The position numbers were made by a program, and so were the translations under genes. The notes beneath the pieces were generated by a model. It was not told the DNA's origin. It made no database searches and saw only the letters and a list, made by a program, of their open reading frames with translations. Source: Jaenimonas drosophilae (Eukaryota > Euglenozoa > Kinetoplastea > Trypanosomatida > Trypanosomatidae). Taken from it: a DNA stretch of 50,369 bases. The stretch spans positions 1 to 50,369 of the forward strand of contig JASAON010001541.1 of the NCBI GenBank assembly GCA_030849065.1. Direction: 5' to 3'. Positions 2,806 to 20,516 of the stretch are shown in pieces. Position 1 is the first letter of the stretch. Every line of letters begins with the position of its first letter.

Positions 2806-4548
2806 ATGTCTAACTCCTACAGCCCCTTCTCGGGCTACGCCAACAACCGTGGAGGAAGTGCCAGCTCCAGCAACAACAAGCGCGCGCTCGACGGGGCAGC
2901 GGGTGGGATGGGTGCCGTGGATTGGTCGGCCAAGACGTTGGTGCCCGGCAAATGGAAGGTGGTTGACGTGAACGCCATCAAGAAGGCCGCACACAGCAAA
3001 GATGATCCATCTGCCCCGAAGGTGCAGCAACTCACCGATGACGAAGCGGCGGAGTGGCGCACCACACACACCATCACCGTCTCTGAGGCCAACTGCCCCA
3101 AGCCCATCACGGAGTTTGCGATGCTCAGCAACTACGTCATTCCGCACTATCTCCTGAAGAAGCTCACCGACCAGGGCTTCAAGAGCCCAACGGCGGTGCA
3201 GGCACAATCGTGGCCGATCCTCCTCAACGGCCGCGACATTGTTGGCGTGGCCAAGACAGGCTCCGGCAAGACCCTCTCCTTCATTGTGCCAGCGCTCGCA
3301 CACATTGCCATTCAGGATGCGCTACGTCCTGGTGATGGCCCCATGTGTGTGGTGCTCGCCCCCACTCGCGAGCTCGCGCAGCAAATTGAGCAAGAGACGA
3401 TGAAGGTGCTGCCACAGAATGTGCGCTGCGGCTGCATCTACGGCGGAGCACCAAAGGGCCCCCAGTTGGGCATGTTGCGTCAGGGCGTGCACATTCTTGT
3501 TGCTACTCCCGGTAGGCTCATTGACTTTCTCGAGATTAAGCGCGTGAATCTTCTCCGGGTGACGTACCTCGTCCTCGATGAGGCTGATCGCATGCTGGAT
3601 ATGGGCTTTGAACCACAGGTGCGTGCCATTTGCGGGCAGATTCGTCCCGACCGCCAAACCTTGATGTTCTCGGCGACGTGGCCCAAGGAGATCCAGCAGC
3701 TTGCCGCCTCATTTCAGCGTGATTGGATCCGCATCAACGTCGGCAGCACGGAGCTCCTCGCCAACAAGGATGTGGTGCAGCACTTCATCCTCACCCAGGA
3801 GTCATCCAAGTTTGATGAGCTCCAGAAGCTCATGAATAACTACCGCAACCAACGCGTGCTCGTCTTCTGCAAAACCAAGAAGACGGCCGACTACCTTGAG
3901 TATCAGCTGAAGCGCATCGGCGTGGATGCCATGGCCATTCACGGCGACAAGGAACAACGCCAGCGTGAGTTCATTTTGGAGCGTTTCCGTCGTGACAAGC
4001 GTTTGTGTTTGGTGGCCACGGACGTGGCGGCGCGTGGCTTAGATATCAAGGAGCTCGAGACGGTTGTGAATTATGATTTTCCGATGCAGATTGATGATTA
4101 TGTGCATCGCATTGGCCGCACAGGTCGTGCCGGGGCCAAGGGAGAGGCCTTCACCCTCATTACGAAGCGCGAGGACCAACTGAACCCTCAGGCCGTGCGT
4201 CAGCTCGTTGGCATCGTGGAACGTGCGCAACAAGCAGTGCCAGACTGGCTGAAAGATTGGTGCGAGCAGGGCGGCGGCTATGCTGTGATGAAGCGCAATC
4301 GCAACGTCACCGGTGGCTTTGCCGGACGTCGTGGAGCACCGCAGATGCGCATGCCCGGAGGTGGCATGGCCCCATCTTTTGATGCACGTTCAGGTAGCAG
4401 CAACAACAACAACAACAACACCTTTGGTCTTGGCGGCCACAAGGGTGGAGCGCAGCCCTTTGGCGGTAGTAGTGGAGGCATCCAGTACAAGCGCTTCGAT
4501 GATAGCGATGATGATGATGCGCCACCGGCCAAGAGGACCAAGGCTTAA
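2806..4548 (+). CDS. ATP-dependent DEAD-box RNA helicase, Dbp2/p68-like
   Basis: 580 residues with a complete DEAD-box core. Seen: Q-motif region (FKSPTAVQAQSWP, about 125-137), motif I AKTGSGKT (149-156), PTREL (187-190), TPGR (234-237), motif II DEAD (258-261), motif III SAT (289-291), VFCKTKK (about 353-359), ARGLD (409-413) and motif VI HRIGRTGR (434-441). The family unwinds short RNA duplexes with ATP. The N-terminal extension before the Q motif and the Gly/Asn-rich tail resemble the Dbp2/DDX5 branch, which acts in nuclear RNP remodelling and rRNA or mRNA processing. The tail contains a seven-Asn run from AAC codons and an acidic patch before KRTKA. The start codon is the first ATG after the predicted acceptor. 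The family assignment is firm; the exact orthologue is inferred. Confidence 0.96.
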   Translation: MSNSYSPFSGYANNRGGSASSSNNKRALDGAAGGMGAVDWSAKTLVPGKWKVVDVNAIKKAAHSKDDPSAPKVQQLTDDEAAEWRTTHTITVSEANCPKPITEFAMLSNYVIPHYLLKKLTDQGFKSPTAVQAQSWPILLNGRDIVGVAKTGSGKTLSFIVPALAHIAIQDALRPGDGPMCVVLAPTRELAQQIEQETMKVLPQNVRCGCIYGGAPKGPQLGMLRQGVHILVATPGRLIDFLEIKRVNLLRVTYLVLDEADRMLDMGFEPQVRAICGQIRPDRQTLMFSATWPKEIQQLAASFQRDWIRINVGSTELLANKDVVQHFILTQESSKFDELQKLMNNYRNQRVLVFCKTKKTADYLEYQLKRIGVDAMAIHGDKEQRQREFILERFRRDKRLCLVATDVAARGLDIKELETVVNYDFPMQIDDYVHRIGRTGRAGAKGEAFTLITKREDQLNPQAVRQLVGIVERAQQAVPDWLKDWCEQGGGYAVMKRNRNVTGGFAGRRGAPQMRMPGGGMAPSFDARSGSSNNNNNNTFGLGGHKGGAQPFGGSSGGIQYKRFDDSDDDDAPPAKRTKA

Positions 4549-5217
4549 TAAGAACTCCCTTTGTTGGCAAACGCTCGTGTGCGAGAATCTAATGATCTTT
4601 TTTTTTTCTTTGATCGGTTAAGTGTGAGTGATGCATCGTCGTGATGACGGAAATCTGCTGTATCGGGTTCGTTGCTGATAATCTGGAAGAGATGATGTTG
4701 ATGATGTTGGGTGACTGTGGCCTTGCAGACGGGCCATGTACGGGCCTGCGCCAAAGTAGGTGGCATCCTCAGCAGCATCTCTTCGTACCAGAAGGAATCA
4801 GAGATGATCACCACGTAATGAATCAGAACGTGTGTGGGTGATGTGTATGGGCACACTGAGCTCTATGGCACACTGTGCTGCTCATACATGTTTGGTACCC
4901 CGCCTTTGCCACCACGTTCACAACCGCTCTAAATTACTCAGTTTTTAGTCGTCACTGCATCCATGCACTCCACCATGTGCCATCCTTCACCATATTCTTG
5001 ATCTTCTCGCCCCGCATCCTACATGCTCTCCTCCACTTCATTCTCATTTGCAACGTAGCTTCCAAACTATTTTTTGGTCTTCTTGTTGGCCGTTAACCAG
5101 CACCCCCTCATCGTTTCGTGTTGCGCAACACATAAATACGTGGTCACGATCGTAGTAGTAGCACACGACTAAAAACAAACTTCTACGCACACCCACACAC
5201 TCATACACACCATCGCA
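4549..5217. other. Spacer between helicase and nucleotidase genes
   Basis: No convincing gene. A T run lies at about 4599-4612. The sequence then becomes pyrimidine-rich and ends with a tract (about 5069-5089) leading to an AG at 5099-5100, the likely splice acceptor for the next gene. A 65-codon ORF from ATG 4644 has no family resemblance and was not called. Confidence 0.5.
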
Positions 5218-6201
5218 ATGAGCCCCAACACCACTACGAACGCACCCCGTTCACTCTATCTCCTCATTGACATTGATAACACTCTCTATCGCTACGATGA
5301 AACAGGTTTTGGTTCTGAGATGCACAAGCGCATTCGTGAGTACGCCATAACCAAGATTGGCCTCTCCCGCGAGGAGGCAGACCCTGTGGCGAGCAACTAC
5401 TATCGCAGCTACGGCCTCGCCCTCCACGGCTTCTACAAGGACTATAAGATCAACGCGAAGGAGTACAGCGACTTCGTGCATCAGTGTTCTTACACGAAGC
5501 TCAGCCGCAATGCCCCGTTGGTGGAGATGCTGACGAAGTTGCAGTGTACGATGCACGCGGCAACACAGCTGCAGGGTGGGGCAACGCAGGGTGCGATGCA
5601 CCACCTCTACTTCTTCACCAACGCCAATCGCCCACACGCACGCAAGGTCTTGGAGCCACTGGGTCTTAAGCCCGTTTTCACCCGCCAACGTGCCGCGTCC
5701 TCCCCAACGATGGAGGTTCACCAAGCCTGTGATGATGAAGGCTTCGATGCTCAAGTGGAGTGGTGTGGCTTTGCGTACGAGGATCAGTGGCGCTTAACGT
5801 CTGGGGATGTGGCCAACAAGCCCATGGTGCGGGCCTACACCGCCGTGTACGAGGCGCTGGCGAAGGAGGTGGAGGAGGATGCACGTGTGATGCGCGATGA
5901 GTTCCACGATAACCCTCACTTCACCCACACGGCGGAAGAGGCTGGCCACCTGATTGCACACAAGCGCGCCACCCTGACGCCTGAGCGCGTGGTGATGGTG
6001 GATGATTCTCTCATGAATCTGGATGCACCACTGGAGCTTGGATGGAATGTGGTGTGGTGCAACCAGGGAGGAACGGGATCCTTCGCTGGAACGCCGCAGG
6101 CTCCCGTCTACGAGGCGGCCATCGCCGCCAAGCGAATGAAGGTCATCCATGATATTCTCGATTTGGGCCGTGTGGTGGAGGAATTCTCGCGAGGAGAATG
6201 A
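5218..6201 (+). CDS. HAD-superfamily pyrimidine 5'-nucleotidase (Sdt1/Phm8-like)
   Basis: 327 residues. The N-terminal HAD motif I is DIDNTLY, with nucleophile Asp18 and acid/base Asp20, followed by the helical cap segment with SNYYRSYG and LHGFYKDY typical of the Sdt1/Phm8 and plant pyrimidine nucleotidase group. Motif II is FFTNA (Thr134), the motif III lysine is probably Lys201 in NKPMVRAY, and motif IV is MVDDS (Asp262, Asp263). By family, it removes the phosphate from UMP or CMP, or from related mononucleotides, in the cytosol. The region between motifs II and III is longer than in yeast Sdt1 and is not recognised. All catalytic residues appear intact; the precise substrate is inferred. 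Confidence 0.9.
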   Translation: MSPNTTTNAPRSLYLLIDIDNTLYRYDETGFGSEMHKRIREYAITKIGLSREEADPVASNYYRSYGLALHGFYKDYKINAKEYSDFVHQCSYTKLSRNAPLVEMLTKLQCTMHAATQLQGGATQGAMHHLYFFTNANRPHARKVLEPLGLKPVFTRQRAASSPTMEVHQACDDEGFDAQVEWCGFAYEDQWRLTSGDVANKPMVRAYTAVYEALAKEVEEDARVMRDEFHDNPHFTHTAEEAGHLIAHKRATLTPERVVMVDDSLMNLDAPLELGWNVVWCNQGGTGSFAGTPQAPVYEAAIAAKRMKVIHDILDLGRVVEEFSRGE

Positions 6202-6548
6202 GCTTAGACACATGTCGGATGAGGAGTGAGACGTTACTCATCATTCATCAGCCTTTGATGCGGTTCCCTCCCCCCTCTCTCCGCCGCGCACAATTCTTGC
6301 GGTTGCGCGTGCGGATTTGCATTAATACAACCAAATTCACTGCTGCAGTTACCACAGCGTACCCCCACCTCCTCTCACAGACGTACTGCCATGCTCTCAC
6401 TTTCCTCTTCCTCTTCACTTGTTGTGTGCGTCCTCATAACCATTTATATTCACTAGTCTCCTTCTCAGTGATCGCTGATCTGGTTCATACCACAGCCTTA
6501 CCCTCTCTTTGATTCTCATTGCTATTGTTGTTGTGGTTGTGTAGCTCG
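6202..6548. other. Spacer before the p24 gene
   Basis: Pyrimidine-rich throughout, with no credible gene. It ends in a T/TTG-rich stretch and an AG at 6543-6544, four bases before the p24 start codon. Confidence 0.5.
6503..6544 (+). promoter_or_regulatory. Predicted trans-splice acceptor for the p24 gene
   Basis: A T-rich tract with repeated TTG runs to TGTAG; the AG is 6543-6544 and the first ATG is 6549. This fixes the start at 6549, because the upstream in-frame codons include only TTG and lie inside the tract. Confidence 0.6.
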
Positions 6549-7316
6549 ATGCGTTCTCATGCTGCGGTGGCCATCCTTGCCATCCTGCTCCTGGCGCTGA
6601 CAACCACGACCGATGCTCTCTACTATGCCTTCCAGGATTTAGAGCCTCTGTGCTTCGTGCAGGAGGTGATTGAATCCACGCGCACCATCACCGGCACCTA
6701 CCGCCTCTCTCCCGGCCCCCATGAGGAGTATGCATCAACCGAGGTGCTCCTCACCATCACGGAACCCTCTGGCCAAGTTAGCCACGAGAAGACTCTACAC
6801 ACCAGTGAAAAAGTGAGCTCCTTCCACTTCCCTGTGCAGCAGATCGGCTCCTACCTCATTTGCCTCGCACCCAAGAACACCTACCAGCCCCCCACCAGCA
6901 GCCGTAATGCCCCACTCACTGGCACCTTCGCCTTCGATCAGAGCCGTGAGGTTGGCGCCAAGCTACGCCGTCGTGATGAGGAGGTCTCTGCCGCACTCTT
7001 GAAGCGCAAACAGGTCAATGGGATGGATGTACTGAGCTTCACGGATTATGGTGGGCAAAAGAAGAACATCTTGCAACCACGCGAATACCTCATCAATCTT
7101 GATAAGTCATTGATGGACGCCACCTCTCACATGAGCACCATTGACGACTACACGCAGAGCATCATCAACGCTCAGGTTCAGAGTCGTAGCAGCTCTGAAT
7201 CCAGCTTCACAACTGTGTGGGTGTGCGCACTGCTCACAACCCTCATTGCCGTTGCCGTCGTGACGTGGCAGTTCCGCACACTCAAGATGACATTAGAACG
7301 CCGAAAACTTGTCTGA
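6549..7316 (+). CDS. p24 / emp24-gp25L family cargo protein
   Basis: 255 residues from the first ATG after the predicted acceptor. A signal peptide is visible (hydrophobic core about 7-18, likely cut after TDA near residue 23). The GOLD domain follows and includes the family-typical LCFVQEV near residues 34-40. A predicted coiled-coil stem precedes one C-terminal membrane segment (about 221-241) and a 14-residue cytosolic tail. This is the full p24 architecture. By family, p24 proteins cycle between ER and Golgi in COPI and COPII vesicles and help load cargo such as GPI-anchored proteins. The tail ends in RRKLV and lacks the usual diaromatic plus KKxx arrangement, so its retrieval signal is atypical. 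Confidence 0.9.
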   Translation: MRSHAAVAILAILLLALTTTTDALYYAFQDLEPLCFVQEVIESTRTITGTYRLSPGPHEEYASTEVLLTITEPSGQVSHEKTLHTSEKVSSFHFPVQQIGSYLICLAPKNTYQPPTSSRNAPLTGTFAFDQSREVGAKLRRRDEEVSAALLKRKQVNGMDVLSFTDYGGQKKNILQPREYLINLDKSLMDATSHMSTIDDYTQSIINAQVQSRSSSESSFTTVWVCALLTTLIAVAVVTWQFRTLKMTLERRKLV

Positions 7317-8129
7317 GGCATCTGCCGAACCTATGAACCCGTTTCCCCCAAAACAACACAACTTTCCACGACTCCTTCCAAAGCGAACACAACCCCGACA
7401 CATCCACATCTTTCTTCACCAGCATCTCTCTTCTTTTTCTACCACTCTTCATTAGCACCACTAGTACCATTCACTCACACTACACAACAAAACGCCGTTA
7501 TAATCCCGCTCTATGCGCCAACGCACTGCGGAGAGCGATTCATGCACGGCGCAGATTCTCTTGGGTAGCTAGCAGACCCAGACCCATTGGTGTTGCCACT
7601 GTCCTTTCCATGGGCGTGTGCTACACCGACCACACACAGGTGTGTGGTGTTTCCTGGCACTGCCTGGTGACTGTTCTCTCCCTTTCACTATAGCTTTCAC
7701 CTATTCACACACACACGCACGCACACATGTGCATATCCATGGCGGCAATGATTCAAACTAGCAATGTAACTCCGTTATCGGACGATGTGCTGACGAGAAC
7801 TATTGACAACAAACCAAGATCTGCTATGAGGTCCGCCCATGGATTGCTTTGTGTGTTTGCGAGCATGGGTTCGTGGTAACGTTAATGTATATCTTGTTTT
7901 GGTGTATGTTGTTTGTGGTAGTGTGCGTTGTGTAGGTGAGTATAGTGATGGTGTTTATTCTTCTATTTTGCGCTTTGCCTTTTTTTTAGATCTTGTGTTT
8001 AGGTCTGCAGGGAGTCTCAGCTTGTGAGCCTTCTTGTCCTTTTAGTTCATCTGTGCTGTGTGCTGCTGCATTGTGGTGGCAACGATTGGGTAGGCTTATA
8101 GAACATCTACATTTGAAGGAATCAGTGTG
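7317..8129. other. Long spacer between p24 and dynein light chain genes
   Basis: 813 bases without a firmly supported gene. There are two acceptor-like signals: a pyrimidine tract ending in AG at 7692-7693, followed by a 50-codon ORF from ATG 7727 (treated as a finding), and a tract at about 7957-7987 with AG at 7988-7989 that probably serves the dynein gene. A short hairpin (CCACACA/TGTGTGG, about 7630-7647) and a purine/T-rich stretch are the only other structure seen. Confidence 0.45.
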
Positions 8130-11019: not shown

Positions 11020-11332
11020 CCTCCTTGTGGGTGTGGCTCTCCTGATGTGTAGTGCGTGAGAGGCGAGCATGCTTGAATGTTTGACCTCGCTTCCCTCTCC
11101 TATCCATATGCTGGCACACACGCCCATTCTTGCATGAACGAACGAGTAATTCTCCTAAAATTAAATTGTGAAAACACAACAATGATGGTCCCTGCGTGTG
11201 TGTGTGTGCCCAACAACTGTGGGCAATGAATGTTGTTTCCCCTCAGTCGTGGTTGTATGACAATGATGCACATCCTTCACTTCTCATGCTTGTAGTTGTT
11301 ATCATCAGGACTCTTCATTTCAGTAGTGCTTG
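11020..11332. other. Spacer before the tyrosine phosphatase gene
   Basis: No gene seen. It carries a short GT repeat near 11194-11206 and ends in a pyrimidine-rich patch with CAG at 11321-11323, nine bases before the ATG. Confidence 0.45.
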
Positions 11333-12478
11333 ATGCCCTCGGATCAGTTCGTCCCTTATGGACGCCATCGTCTTCCACTGTCTGAGCTCTTTGATTTGCT
11401 CGAGTCGGAGTACATTGAGCTGGAGCGCGCCACAATGAATCCGCGCAGCTTCTCCTTCGCCACTTCGATGGATAACATGATGAAAAATCGCTACTTCAAT
11501 ATCCTGGCAAACGAGGATACCCTCTTCCCGCCCTTGGCGGCCCCATCCGCCACACCACCCGCCGCTCCTACGCCCTACATCAACGCCAACGCCATTGACT
11601 TGCAGGTGAATCCACTCTTTGTCGCTTCGCAGGCCCCAACTCCGTCCTGCATGGCCGATTTCTTCACCACGTTGCTGGAGCAGCGCATCTCACTCATCAT
11701 CATGCTGACGGATACCGTGGAAGGTGTTATGCCCAAGGCAGACCCGTACTGGCCCCTTGACTCAACCGATCAACGTCTGGCGGCCGGTGCGGCGCCGGAG
11801 GAGGAGATGAGTGTGCCGGGAACCAACATTGTGGTGTGCAAGGATCCGCAGCGCCCCTTCACACGCGATGATAAACTTGGGCTGATTTGGCGGCCGATGC
11901 TCCTGAAGCAGCCAGACCGCAGCCCACATCGGCTGCTTCAGGTGCAGTATGTTGGCTGGCCCGACCATGGGGTTCCCAGCACCACAGAGGGCTTTGACCG
12001 ACTCATTGAGCTGACGAGGAGCTACTCAGACCTGAGTAGTTACCAGCAACAGCAACAACAAAAACAACAACAACCGTCGAGTGAGGTTGTGAGTAGCAGC
12101 CCCGAAGTGGATGCCAACCTCGCCCAGCTGAACGCCACGGGGCCGGTGCTAGTACATTGTAGCGCAGGCATTGGCCGAACGGGCACCTTCATTGGTGCCT
12201 ATACGGCGATCAGTCGCTTAGCAACGAAGCGGTTGTCAGAGAAGACCATCCAGCAGGTGGTCTTGAAGATGCGCCGTGCGCGCTTTGGTATGGTCCAGCG
12301 CTTTGAGCAGTACATATTCATTCATCAGGTGACGATGAATGCGCTTGGTGCGGATACGAGCAGCTTTGCCGCCATGGCTCCACGCCGTGCGATGGACTAT
12401 GACGTGAAAGTCATGCAGGCCATGAAGGTTATGAAGGAGCGTGAGGCGTTGAAGAGGCAGGTGCAAGGAAAGCCTTGA
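11333..12478 (+). CDS. Classical protein tyrosine phosphatase
   Basis: 381 residues from ATG 11333, nine bases after a predicted acceptor AG. Landmarks of a classical PTP are present: KNRYFNIL near the N-terminus, YINANAID, FVASQAPT, the WPD loop GWPDHGVP with general acid Asp211, and the P-loop VHCSAGIGRTG with nucleophile Cys276 and Arg282. It should hydrolyse phosphotyrosine by the cysteinyl-phosphate mechanism. Two segments are longer than usual: a Pro/Ala-rich insertion after LFPPLAAPS (about 63-80) and a poly-Gln/Lys/Ser stretch between WPD loop and P-loop (about 237-262) encoded by CAA/CAG repeats. The catalytic set looks complete. There is no membrane segment, so it is a soluble PTP. 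Confidence 0.93.
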   Translation: MPSDQFVPYGRHRLPLSELFDLLESEYIELERATMNPRSFSFATSMDNMMKNRYFNILANEDTLFPPLAAPSATPPAAPTPYINANAIDLQVNPLFVASQAPTPSCMADFFTTLLEQRISLIIMLTDTVEGVMPKADPYWPLDSTDQRLAAGAAPEEEMSVPGTNIVVCKDPQRPFTRDDKLGLIWRPMLLKQPDRSPHRLLQVQYVGWPDHGVPSTTEGFDRLIELTRSYSDLSSYQQQQQQKQQQPSSEVVSSSPEVDANLAQLNATGPVLVHCSAGIGRTGTFIGAYTAISRLATKRLSEKTIQQVVLKMRRARFGMVQRFEQYIFIHQVTMNALGADTSSFAAMAPRRAMDYDVKVMQAMKVMKEREALKRQVQGKP

Positions 12479-16623: not shown

Positions 16624-18165
16624 ATGACCACCAAGTTCCTCAATGACAGTGTGCAGGACGACAGCGGCAAAAATGGCTGGTACAGCGGCAACAGCCAATC
16701 TGAGAAGCCCGGCATTGCGCCGCAGTCTGGCATCTCACTTGGATGGCAACAAGCACCACAAGGCATGTATCCAGAGGCGGCTCCCGCAGCACAACCGAAC
16801 GCGTACGCCGACCCCGTGGCAGGAGAGCCCCTGTATCCTGATGGAGATGCAAAGCTCGCACGTTTCGAGAAGCATGGCTACAAAGATGTCTGGGCAGCAG
16901 TTATATTTCTTATTGTTCTGCTCTTCACAGTCATTTACGGCATCGTCAACGCCGCCACGTACAAGGTCATCAAGGAGGAGCACAAGCATGATGATGGTAC
17001 GGACAGCTTTGAATCGAAGCTCTTCAAGTACTCCAGCGTGGAGTTGGTCTTCATTCTCCTCCTGACCTTTGGTGTGTCGGTGGTGGTGTCCTTCCTCTTG
17101 TTGGCGTTGATGTCATGCATGCCAAAGGTGATGATCATCGTCGGCAACGTCTTCAACATTCTCTGTGCCGTCGCCGTTGCCATCCTCTCCTTCATTGAAG
17201 GGCAAGTGTGGATGGGGATCTTATTCTTGATTCTTGCCGCACTCAGCGCACTGTGGCTCTTTCTTGTTCGTGGCCGCATTCCCTTCTCCGCGGAGCTACT
17301 TCGTGTAGCCTGCAAGGTACTCATGGCCAACAAGATGATCTACGTCATTAACTTTTGTTTGGCGGTCCTGTACTACGGCATCATGGTGTTGTGGTGCTTT
17401 GCGATGCTTCGGCCCGTTGATCGCATCTCCAACAACGTTGATGACGGGTTCGATAAGTTCTGCGCCGTCTTCCTCGTCCTCGTCTTTTTTTGGATCTCGC
17501 AGGTGATGCCCAACCTGATGCACGTCACTACATCTGGTGTGGTGGCAACATGGTACTTTGCGGGGACGAGCAACATGCCCTCCATGCCCGCGGTGCGGTC
17601 CTTCGTCAGAAGCGTCACGACGAGCTTCGGCTCTATTTGCTTTGGCTCACTCATTGTGGCCATTATCCAATTTCTACGCTTTTTGGTGGAGTCATGCATG
17701 CGCGACAGCAACGACTTCCTGCGCTGTATCGTTTCATGTCTTCTGCAGTGTTTGGAGCGTCTCGTGGAGTACTTCAACAACTACGCCCTGATTCACGTGG
17801 CCATCTACGGCTGCGGATACATTGAGGCCGCCAAGCGCACCTTCCATTTGTGCAAGCAGTGCTTCTTCGCGGCCTACTTCAACGATGCACTCATCGCCCC
17901 CACCATCAACATGCTGACGTTCGTCATTGGGGTGTTGCTCGGCGTGTTGGTTGGTCTTATCTTTTGGTCGTGGCCCATTGGAGTTGCCGCTGCACTTGTG
18001 GCGCTGGTGGTGATCTCTCTCATCCTCTCCACCGTTACGAGCGCCGTCTCAACCATTTTTGTGTGCTTCGCCGAAGTACCCGACGGTCTTCAGGCGAGCG
18101 ATCCGCAGCTCTACGATACCATCCGCGCATTGGATGCTGGAGAGACGAACAACGGAGCTGCGTAG
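16624..18165 (+). CDS. Choline-transporter-like membrane protein (SLC44/Pns1 family)
   Basis: 513 residues from ATG 16624; the in-frame TTG at 16615 is not used. A hydrophilic Gln/Pro/Ala-rich cytosolic N-terminus of about 85 residues leads to the first membrane segment (about 88-110), and about ten hydrophobic segments follow. Family landmarks are clear: PNLMHVTTSGVVATWYF, SFGSICFGSLIVAIIQ, and the NNYALIHVAIYGCGYIEAAK region characteristic of Pns1/CTL proteins. Animal CTL1 transports choline or ethanolamine; fungal Pns1 has no firmly known substrate. In a kinetoplastid it could supply phospholipid precursors at the plasma or an internal membrane, which is inference. No truncation is evident. 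Confidence 0.92.
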   Translation: MTTKFLNDSVQDDSGKNGWYSGNSQSEKPGIAPQSGISLGWQQAPQGMYPEAAPAAQPNAYADPVAGEPLYPDGDAKLARFEKHGYKDVWAAVIFLIVLLFTVIYGIVNAATYKVIKEEHKHDDGTDSFESKLFKYSSVELVFILLLTFGVSVVVSFLLLALMSCMPKVMIIVGNVFNILCAVAVAILSFIEGQVWMGILFLILAALSALWLFLVRGRIPFSAELLRVACKVLMANKMIYVINFCLAVLYYGIMVLWCFAMLRPVDRISNNVDDGFDKFCAVFLVLVFFWISQVMPNLMHVTTSGVVATWYFAGTSNMPSMPAVRSFVRSVTTSFGSICFGSLIVAIIQFLRFLVESCMRDSNDFLRCIVSCLLQCLERLVEYFNNYALIHVAIYGCGYIEAAKRTFHLCKQCFFAAYFNDALIAPTINMLTFVIGVLLGVLVGLIFWSWPIGVAAALVALVVISLILSTVTSAVSTIFVCFAEVPDGLQASDPQLYDTIRALDAGETNNGAA

Positions 18166-18961
18166 GCTCACGTCGGATGACGCCGCTCATCATCATCATC
18201 ATCATCTCCCCGCGTTCATTGTTGGTTGCACTACATCCAGCCGGCCCCCCCCTCTTTTTTTTTTTAGGATTGCGTTGAAAATGGAGGCCGTTACTGGCTG
18301 ACAGTGAGAGAGAGAGAGAGGATGTTGATGCCGTGCAAGAGGCGGTGCTGCATGGATCCCTTCACTGGGGACATTGCCATCTCAACAATGTCCTTCCTTC
18401 TCTGATTTCTCTAGTAGCGCTCACTAAGGCATTACCTATGATGTTTTTGTGGTGATGGTGGTTCCTCCTCTTTTATGCTTTGTTGCAGAAGCGTCGTGAG
18501 CCCGAAACACACGCGACTGTGGTGTACCGACCCCTCTCCTTGTAGTGACTTCCTCTGCATGCAGCTATTCATGATGATGATGATCATCATCGTTGGTACC
18601 TTGGCTGATGGCTGCGGCAGGCAATTGCAGTGAGGATGAGAAGTACCTGACTGTAGCAGCTGTGATGGAATGGCATTTATACTTGGCCACAAGAAAACAA
18701 CACCAGCAACAGCATGTGGTGCGTGTATGTGTGTGATGAAGTATGTGTGCAGGGGGGCGATGTGCATCTCCATTTGCGACAGGCCACCAATGACCTATTT
18801 TTTTTTTTTTTGTTGAGCACCGATTTGTGAATGAAAGGCGTCGCTGGAAAACAAGAGAGATGATCGTGATGTAGAAGAGATGGGGGGAGTCTCTGACATT
18901 TGATGGATCACATGTTTGCTAGTTATTAGGATGATTGCGCTGGTTTCTTTTATTCTAGTGG
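18166..18961. other. Gene-poor spacer left of the palindromic element
   Basis: No gene seen. Contents: a CAT run (about 18188-18206), a T run (about 18255-18265), an AG repeat (18304-18321), one copy of a roughly 50-base imperfect direct repeat (18373-18422), a GAT/ATC palindrome near 18570-18590, and another T run (about 18798-18811). Confidence 0.5.
18373..18422. repeat. Direct repeat, left copy, flanking the palindromic element
   Basis: This stretch aligns by eye with 19887-19936. A 14-base block CCTTCCTTCTCTGA is identical in both, and CATCT, AACAATG and GTAGC match around it, with scattered substitutions and a small indel. The copies lie on either side of the inverted repeat and have the same orientation. 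Confidence 0.6.
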
Positions 18962-19832
18962 GATCGGAAACCGAAGAGACGTGAATGATCAGAGACGCTG
19001 AATGAGTGTGAAATGAATGGTCTACCTGTCCTCATCTGGTCTACAGATAGTCAGTGCTCCGCGTTTCCTGCGGGGAAAAAGAAACAAACAATTTTTTTTA
19101 GGGACTTGCACGATGACACTTCGCCGATGGCAGCAGTGTAACCATCTATCCACCATCATCTACGGTGCGATGGCCATAATTTGCAGTGATGGGCCCATGC
19201 CCTTGTCCATATGGGATGCCAACCCCCATGGGATCCCATCACGGGTAGAAATCCTTTACCCAGACGAGGACATCATGAGCACCATCGAAGGGTTCATTGC
19301 GCAACCGGAGCACCTCGGGTTGTTACGGGAGCCGGCAACAATGAAGAGCGCAAACGCCGACTTCGTGCACTTCATTCAAAGTGCGTGTATGAAATACACA
19401 CACAGGGCAGAACCGCCGACATGGCCAGAGTTATTGGCAGACTGGCACAGGGGGCCCCACGACCCCAGGACAAGGTTCGTGGTGGGACCGAGGGTGCCGT
19501 ACGCGTCCTCAAACACGGCGATAGTAATGCCGTTGGAGGTGGTCTCTCCCAGGACATCTGTCCGTTGGCCCTTGGCGTCCCATATGGACAAGGGCATGGG
19601 CCCATCACTGCAAATTATGGCCATCGCACCGTAGATGATGGTGGATAGATGGTTACACTGCTGCCATCGGCGAAGTGTCATCGTGCAAGTCCCTAAAAAA
19701 AATTGTTTGTTTCTTTTTCCCCGCAGGAAACGCGGAGCACTGACTATCTGTAGACCAGATGAGGACAGGTAGACCATTCATTTCACACTCATTCAGCGTC
19801 TCTGATCATTCACGTCTCTTCGGTTTCCGATC
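18962..19832. mobile_element. Palindromic element: 261-bp inverted repeats around a 349-bp core
   Basis: 18962-19222 and 19572-19832 are inverted copies; comparing the two by eye I found only one mismatch (T at 19217 against the complement of G at 19577). Each arm encodes the same protein start, read outside-in (ATG at 19017 on +, and at 19777 on -). The outer ends read GATCGGAAACCGAAGAG. The only ambiguous base in the window, N at 19833, abuts the right arm. No clear target-site duplication touches the ends. It may be a TIR or foldback element, a segment produced by fold-back DNA synthesis, or an assembly or library artefact; the sequence alone cannot separate these. The type label is the nearest available, not a firm claim. 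Confidence 0.55.
19223..19571. other. Unique core of the palindromic element, coding-like
   Basis: The + strand frame stays open through the core as part of a 205-codon ORF (19017-19634), and the - strand frame is open into the core as well (19376-19777). The + frame core has normal-looking composition, with segments such as YPDEDIMSTIEGFIAQPE and PPTWPELLADWHRG, and many G or C third positions. Its Arg and Gly codons (AGG, GGG) differ from neighbouring genes. No family is recognised. It may be a gene fragment captured between the arms. Confidence 0.35.
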
Positions 19833-19886
19833 NTGAGTGAGCCATGAGCGATGAAAAACGGGGGATTGAAACTGCGATCGTGGAAA

Positions 19887-19936
19887 AATGGCATCTTAAC
19901 AATGCCCTTCCTTCTCTGACGTCTCGCTCGTAGCAC
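19887..19936. repeat. Direct repeat, right copy, flanking the palindromic element
   Basis: Partner of 18373-18422. It lies 54 bases beyond the N that ends the right arm and upstream of the BRCT gene's splice acceptor. Confidence 0.6.
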
Positions 19937-19978
19937 TCTCTTCGCGCGTGAATGCATCCAACCACAACACCACTCTAC

Positions 19979-20064: not shown

Positions 20065-20516
20065 ATGCTCTGCGGGCACGTCTTCGTGGGCCACCGTGCA
20101 CGTCTGCGCCAGACCACCATCGATCTCATCCACGCCGAGGGAGCTACCCTGGTGGAGAACATGAGCAAGAACAACAACGTCACGTGCGGCATCGTCTCTG
20201 CCTGCTCTTCTGGCAAAGATGATGATGATGCACCACGTTGGTTCCGCATTCTTCAACGTTTGCGGATGCCGATTGTTTATGAAGATTGGCTGCACGCTCG
20301 TGTTGCTGGCCACGACGATGCATCCTCCAGACGTGGTGCCCTTATTTGTTTTGACCCATCACTCATGGACCACATCATCTTCACAACAACTCAGCTTCCG
20401 CGCTTCGTGAAGATGAATGTTGTGGCAGCAATGCAGGCAATGGGCGCTCGATACTCACGCCACCTCACCAGCGACACCAACTTCCTCGTGTGTTGCCCTG
20501 TCATGGACAACACAAC

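What the first reader, a model, noticed from the sequence alone, without database searches (positions are those of the whole stretch)
18962..19832. Near-perfect 261-bp inverted repeat with a single N at its edge
The arms match at all positions but one and enclose 349 bp of unique DNA, so the strand could fold into a long hairpin. Long inverted repeats are rare in single-copy kinetoplastid spacers, but in Leishmania they are known to seed extrachromosomal amplification. The only ambiguous base in the window abuts the right arm, which hints that the assembler struggled here. The candidates are a real foldback or TIR element, a duplicated segment, or a library chimera.
Basis: partly seen in the sequence, partly recalled or inferred. 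Interest (0 to 1): 0.75.

Follow-up and report, generated by a model that had tools for sequence, protein, structure and literature searches.

The report
Mobile-element inverted repeat inside another repeat
The mirror-image DNA is made of two copies of the front end of an old mobile element, sitting inside a second repeat; it is probably a real rearranged insertion of a familiar sort in these parasites, but only sequencing reads can rule out an assembly error.

Summary
The inverted repeat is as described: 18962-19222 against 19572-19832, 260 of 261 bases, spacer 349 bp, the window's only N at 19833. The arms are not single-copy. Their first ~140 bp are the 5' end of a small dispersed family ("S", short form 474 bp) found on five other contigs (C229, C199, C210, C185, C282). 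Beyond it each arm enters its own coding-like frame; only the right one continues, for 29 bp, collinear with the C185 copy. The unit lies inside one copy of a second repeat ("R", ~450 bp): R-left ends at 18954-18958 against several copies, and R-right aligns from 19834 with C25 (from 19849 with C282, 19866 with C263), with ~176 bp of R missing. So both flanks belong to one locus and both borders are at or near S 5' ends. Best reading: a degraded retroposon-like insertion with two convergent 5' ends, kept or made identical by recent inverted duplication or conversion. An assembly error in the right arm or spacer orientation is not excluded. T. brucei has seven near-identical long inverted repeats, all siRNA sources (PMC3447711), so the kind is known.

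The parts
18962..19222 (+). left arm: S-family 5' end followed by the start of a coding-like frame (ATG at 19113)
   Evidence: ATG position read from the sequence printed
19572..19832 (-). right arm, reverse copy of the left arm (1 mismatch)
18956..19099 (+). stretch matching S positions 1-144 (short form on C229), 94%
19695..19832 (-). stretch matching S positions 7-144, 94%
19223..19571 (.). spacer, 58% GC; left part coding-like on +, right part coding-like on - (with a weaker signal in another + frame)
19017..19634 (+). open frame of 205 aa through left arm and spacer into the right arm; no protein relative found
19379..19777 (-). open frame of 133 aa from the right arm into the spacer; collinear with the C185 copy for about 10 residues past the arm edge (includes QRTDVLG)
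19833..19833 (.). single N between the right arm and R-right
18804..18957 (+). left part of a copy of repeat R (matches C25:11158-11318, 73%)
19834..19943 (+). right part of the same copy of R (aligns with C25:11495-11612; E 5e-8 to C263 and E 2e-4 to C282 for its inner part)
18257..18411 (+). second, shorter R-like piece upstream

Best explanation
The inverted repeat is a degraded insertion of a low-copy retroposon-like family (S), lying inside another dispersed repeat (R). Shown: both arms are S 5' ends pointing inwards; the unit starts at an S 5' end and stops at position 7 of one; R lies on both sides in order and orientation with about 176 bp of R missing; each arm is followed by its own coding-like frame. 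Inferred: S copies in opposite orientation were fused tail to tail with loss of their 3' ends (or one copy was duplicated in inverted orientation during break repair or replication), and the arms stayed identical because the event is recent or because the arms convert each other. If the polycistronic transcript runs through, it would carry a 261-bp RNA hairpin.
For: S relatives of the arms on C229, C199, C210, C185 and C282. Short form 474 bp on C229; C15 carries its flanks without the element. Of eight genomic hits to the 20-base S 5' word (up to 3 mismatches) six have at most 1 mismatch, and four of these six form two convergent pairs (window, C185); the reversed-pattern control gave 0. R-left ends at 18957 against C25, 18954 against C263 and C251, 18954-18958 against C282; R-right aligns from 19834 with C25, from 19849 with C282, from 19866 with C263. 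C25, C282 and C263 carry R uninterrupted. Coding-like composition on + about 19200-19410 and on - about 19410-19650. The right arm's relation to C185 runs 29 bp past the arm edge.
Against: Identity over 255 bp contrasts with 75-94% to the nearest genomic relatives, and the N sits on the right junction, so an assembly artefact stays open. That R-right is flush with the N rests on the C25 alignment alone; searching the genome with C25's R found only the left part in the window. No target-site duplication and no S 3' end in the unit. The left arm's inner junction is unsupported by any relative. Codon composition is also mildly positive in a second + frame over about 19380-19590. No autonomous partner of S was found.
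Confidence: 0.6

Rival explanations
1. Assembly artefact: the locus holds one S 5' end, and the second arm was added by a misjoin at a collapsed repeat or by a chimeric fragment.
For: Single N at the outer edge of the right arm; 255 identical bases although the nearest relatives differ by 6-25%; single Ns recur in this assembly.
Against: Both flanks are parts of one R copy. The right arm's inner edge is collinear with C185 and the left arm's outer edge with C229 and C199, so each arm has a supported join, unless the spacer is flipped. In the 1 kb left of the five other single Ns examined no inverted pair of this length was found; one pair of 65 bp lies there on C185.
Confidence: 0.25
2. A foldback element that inserts as one unit with long terminal inverted repeats.
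For: Unit borders lie at S 5' ends on both sides, next to R; C185 also has convergent S 5' ends, 457 bp from end to end.
Against: No target-site duplication and about 176 bp of R missing; the two short S copies with both ends read, C229 and C199, have non-inverted ends TAGTG...TTATTC; no second copy of the whole unit in the assembly.
Confidence: 0.1
3. A remnant of two members of a host gene family with a shared 5' part, unrelated to mobile elements.
For: Frames of 205 and 133 aa open across the arms.
Against: The shared 5' part also stands at the head of short forms with a fixed 3' end; no protein relatives found.
Confidence: 0.05

Closest known systems
Long near-identical inverted repeats of Trypanosoma brucei (IR1-IR7; PMC3447711, passages read)
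   Same: Pairs of nearly identical arms (99-100%) in a trypanosomatid; there two were checked by PCR and all seven give small RNAs.
   Different: Those arms are 422-10,011 bp; here 261 bp, traceable to a mobile element, and small RNAs are untested.
SIDER / RIME / NARTc short retroposons of the ingi-L1Tc clade (PMC2323293, PMC4748587, PMC4035085, passages read)
   Same: Short dispersed elements whose 5' end is shared with coding-type copies; CGTG at +25 to +28, the position given for the Pr77 DPE, in 3 of 4 S ends that contain position 1.
   Different: First 15 bases match the L1Tc Pr77 primer at only 3-4 of 15; the tail is ATT-type, not A-rich; no similarity to the ingi-like copy on C305.
VIPER / SIRE (PMC6681497, abstract and two sections read)
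   Same: Short element made of the 5' part and the 3' part of a longer coding element.
   Different: No tyrosine recombinase over the cut-off in this assembly, one match below it; split direct repeats were not looked for.
Inverted repeats that seed linear amplicons in Leishmania (PMC4256157, PMC4028189, passages read)
   Same: Paired inverted repeats in a trypanosomatid chromosome.
   Different: Those discussed there are kilobases apart; here 349 bp. Amplification untested.

Membership tests
ingi/SIDER clade retroposon | 79-bp / Pr77 signature at the 5' end | tested here: inconclusive
   CGTG at +25 in 3 of 4 ends, at +29 in the fourth; 3-4 of 15 bases to the L1Tc primer printed in PMC4748587; full signature not at hand
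ingi/SIDER clade retroposon | A-rich 3' tail | tested here: not met
   3' ends read ...GGATTATTC, or an ATT run on C185
ingi/SIDER clade retroposon | target-site duplication | tested here: inconclusive
   TACTCA on both sides of the C282 relic; none clear at C229, C199, C185 or at the window unit
ingi/SIDER clade retroposon | HDV-like ribozyme at the 5' end (not in all members) | tested here: inconclusive
   No Rfam match at gathering threshold in window, L009-L011 nor up to E 0.5 in L075, L076, L004; RNA fold of two S ends no better than shuffles; whether Rfam holds the L1Tc type was not checked
VIPER/SIRE | tyrosine recombinase partner in the genome | tested here: not met
   PF00589: 0 matches over cut-off, one at E 0.018 below it
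foldback / TIR DNA element | terminal inverted repeats with target-site duplication | tested here: not met
   arms present, but no duplication seen and about 176 bp of target missing
siRNA-producing trypanosome inverted repeat | small RNAs from the arms | not testable with these tools
   no RNA data

The most novel reading that the evidence does not exclude
The S family has a recurrent foldback form: convergent 5' ends arise repeatedly (window, C185), and the transcribed hairpin would be a natural source of double-stranded RNA that silences the remaining S copies, which would explain both the low copy number and the arm identity.
Probability: 0.07. Interest if true: 0.6.

Novelty: new member of a known kind. 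Interest (0 to 1): 0.33.

Why it matters
It shows how a near-perfect inverted repeat in a compact trypanosomatid genome can trace back to nested repeats, and gives a small, PCR-sized locus at which arm homogenisation, hairpin stability and hairpin-derived small RNAs could be examined. It also describes two repeat families (S, R) of this genome; whether they have been catalogued elsewhere was not tested.

Tried and rejected
A tRNA or known RNA in the arms: none (on three loci). A known protein domain in the frames: none reported by Pfam up to E 10 (the program's filters drop most weak matches). No protein relative of the 205-aa frame: 65 candidates, none at E 0.001. A link to the ingi-like copy on C305 (RT, weak RNase H and C2H2 matches): no similarity to S. 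A VIPER/TATE-like partner: no tyrosine recombinase over the cut-off. RVT_1 gave five matches, three over the cut-off; four of the five neighbourhoods, one of them only in part, were compared with S, without a match. An HDV-like fold at the S 5' end: no better than shuffles for two copies. A target-site duplication of the whole unit: none seen. My arm printout was out of register by one base; the comparison was redone. I could not survey inverted repeats or Ns over a random genome sample; rarity rests on 133 kb chosen for other reasons, where the only other inverted pair of 60 bp or more (at E 1e-10) is the 111-bp, 85% pair on C185. The codon test used 17 window frames as training, and the gene shown as calibration is one of them.

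Full report
Observation. The window compared with itself has one long inverted pair, 18962-19222 and 19832-19572, 261 bp with one mismatch. The mismatch (19217 against 19577) is six bases from the inner edge, the outer 255 bp are identical, and homology ends right after the arms (16 of 38 bases match). The unit folds far better than its shuffles and no other exact inverted match of 30 bp or more exists in the window. The N at 19833 touches the right arm. Single Ns are frequent in this assembly, six in 133,251 bases of 11 separate stretches (of 12 held at that time); one of the other five, on C185, also lies among S-family pieces.

Setting. The genome is 18.79 Mb in 370 contigs. The unit lies between a choline-transporter-like gene ending at 18165 and a BRCT gene starting at 20065; the next gene is Sec1/Vps45-like. 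Named trypanosomatid relatives of that last protein are 44-49% identical and outrank all other named hits, so the kinetoplastid guess holds; the species is not known.

The arms belong to a family. Searching the genome with the unit, and then with relatives, found copies on C229, C199, C210, C185 and C282. The short form on C229 is 474 bp, from TAGTGAGATCGG to GGATTATTC; C199 matches all of it at 86%, C210 positions 167-474 (it starts at a contig end), C282 positions 26-381 in reverse at 64%, between end words in the forward sense and with TACTCA on both sides. C15 carries the flanks of the C229 copy without the element. C185 is composite: a forward 5' end, then a reverse piece in which S position 474 abuts S position 1, then a forward 3' end with an ATT run. 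With up to 3 mismatches the 20-base 5' word occurs eight times, six with at most one mismatch, four of those six as two convergent pairs (window and C185); the control pattern gave none. 'S' and 'R' are my labels. Copy counts are lower bounds, as the search tool says.

Coding part. Beyond S position ~144 the arms and the C185 copy share a frame (MTLRRWQQ... in the window) that the short forms lack; on C185 it holds two TAG stops. From the right arm the relation to C185 continues 29 bp, about 10 residues, past the arm edge (QRTDVLG); from the left arm the frame runs into a different sequence. Codon composition trained on 17 window frames favours one + frame over about 19200-19410 and one - frame over about 19410-19650; a second + frame is mildly positive over about 19380-19590, so the signal is not clean. 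This looks like two coding fragments tail to tail. No relative was found for either beyond the S copies (the protein-database search was run for the 205-aa frame only; one match at E 0.34 is taken as chance).

The unit sits inside a second repeat. Its left flank aligns with R on C25 (18804-18957 to 11158-11318), C263, C282 and C251, always ending at 18954-18958. Its right flank aligns with C25 from 19834 (11495-11612), with C282 from 19849 and with C263 from 19866; the database-style E-values are 5e-8 (C263) and 2e-4 (C282), while the C25 alignment is a pairwise one without an E-value. C25, C282 and C263 carry R uninterrupted. A genome search with C25's R gave 14 matches including itself, six of them nearly full length; in the window it found the left part only. 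S and R do not match each other on C282, where both occur. So the unit replaces about 176 bp of R. The left border is S position 1; the right border is S position 7 plus the N, flush with R if C25 is the guide. This makes it likely that the two flanks are true neighbours and that the right arm's outer edge is an element edge rather than an arbitrary break.

How it arose. No target-site duplication and no S 3' end are seen, so one clean insertion does not explain it. Fusion of two convergent S copies with loss of the 3' halves, or inverted duplication during repair, does. The left arm alone carries S 1-6; the right arm alone carries the C185-like continuation. If the spacer were flipped, all this family sequence would fall on one copy and the other arm would be a plain inverted duplicate. 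Reads shorter than the arms cannot tell these isomers apart, nor exclude that one arm is an assembly error.

Known context. Passages of PMC3447711 report seven long inverted repeats in T. brucei with 99-100% identical arms, two of them checked by PCR, all giving small RNAs. Near-identity of arms is thus not by itself a mark of error. Passages of PMC4028189 and PMC4256157 report many repeats in both orientations in Leishmania and linear amplicons formed at inverted ones kilobases apart. For membership: S has CGTG at +25 to +28 in three of four ends that contain position 1 (+29 in the fourth), the position given for the Pr77 DPE (PMC4748587, passages), but the first 15 bases do not resemble the L1Tc primer, and the tail is not A-rich. 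No tyrosine recombinase passes its cut-off, against a VIPER/SIRE relation. S therefore stays unassigned, retroposon-like.

Verdict. Real sequence feature, mobile-element origin well supported, likely a real rearranged insertion of a known kind, artefact not excluded. No claim is made that S or R is unpublished; only the paper searches were made, and no repeat library was compared.

Noticed in passing
window 18257-18411: A second, shorter piece of repeat R lies about 550 bp upstream of the copy that holds the inverted repeat.
   Followed up: partly
L010 (C185) 4253-5671: An S copy contains a reverse piece in which the S 3' end is joined directly to the S 5' end, as if taken from a tandem or circular form.
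   Followed up: partly
L067 (C282) 4584-4933: An S relic whose interior is inverted between end words in the forward sense, flanked by TACTCA on both sides.
   Followed up: partly
L064 (C305) 3590-7743: An ingi-like LINE remnant: separate open pieces with reverse transcriptase, weak RNase H and C2H2-finger matches; two shorter partial matches elsewhere in the assembly.
   Followed up: partly
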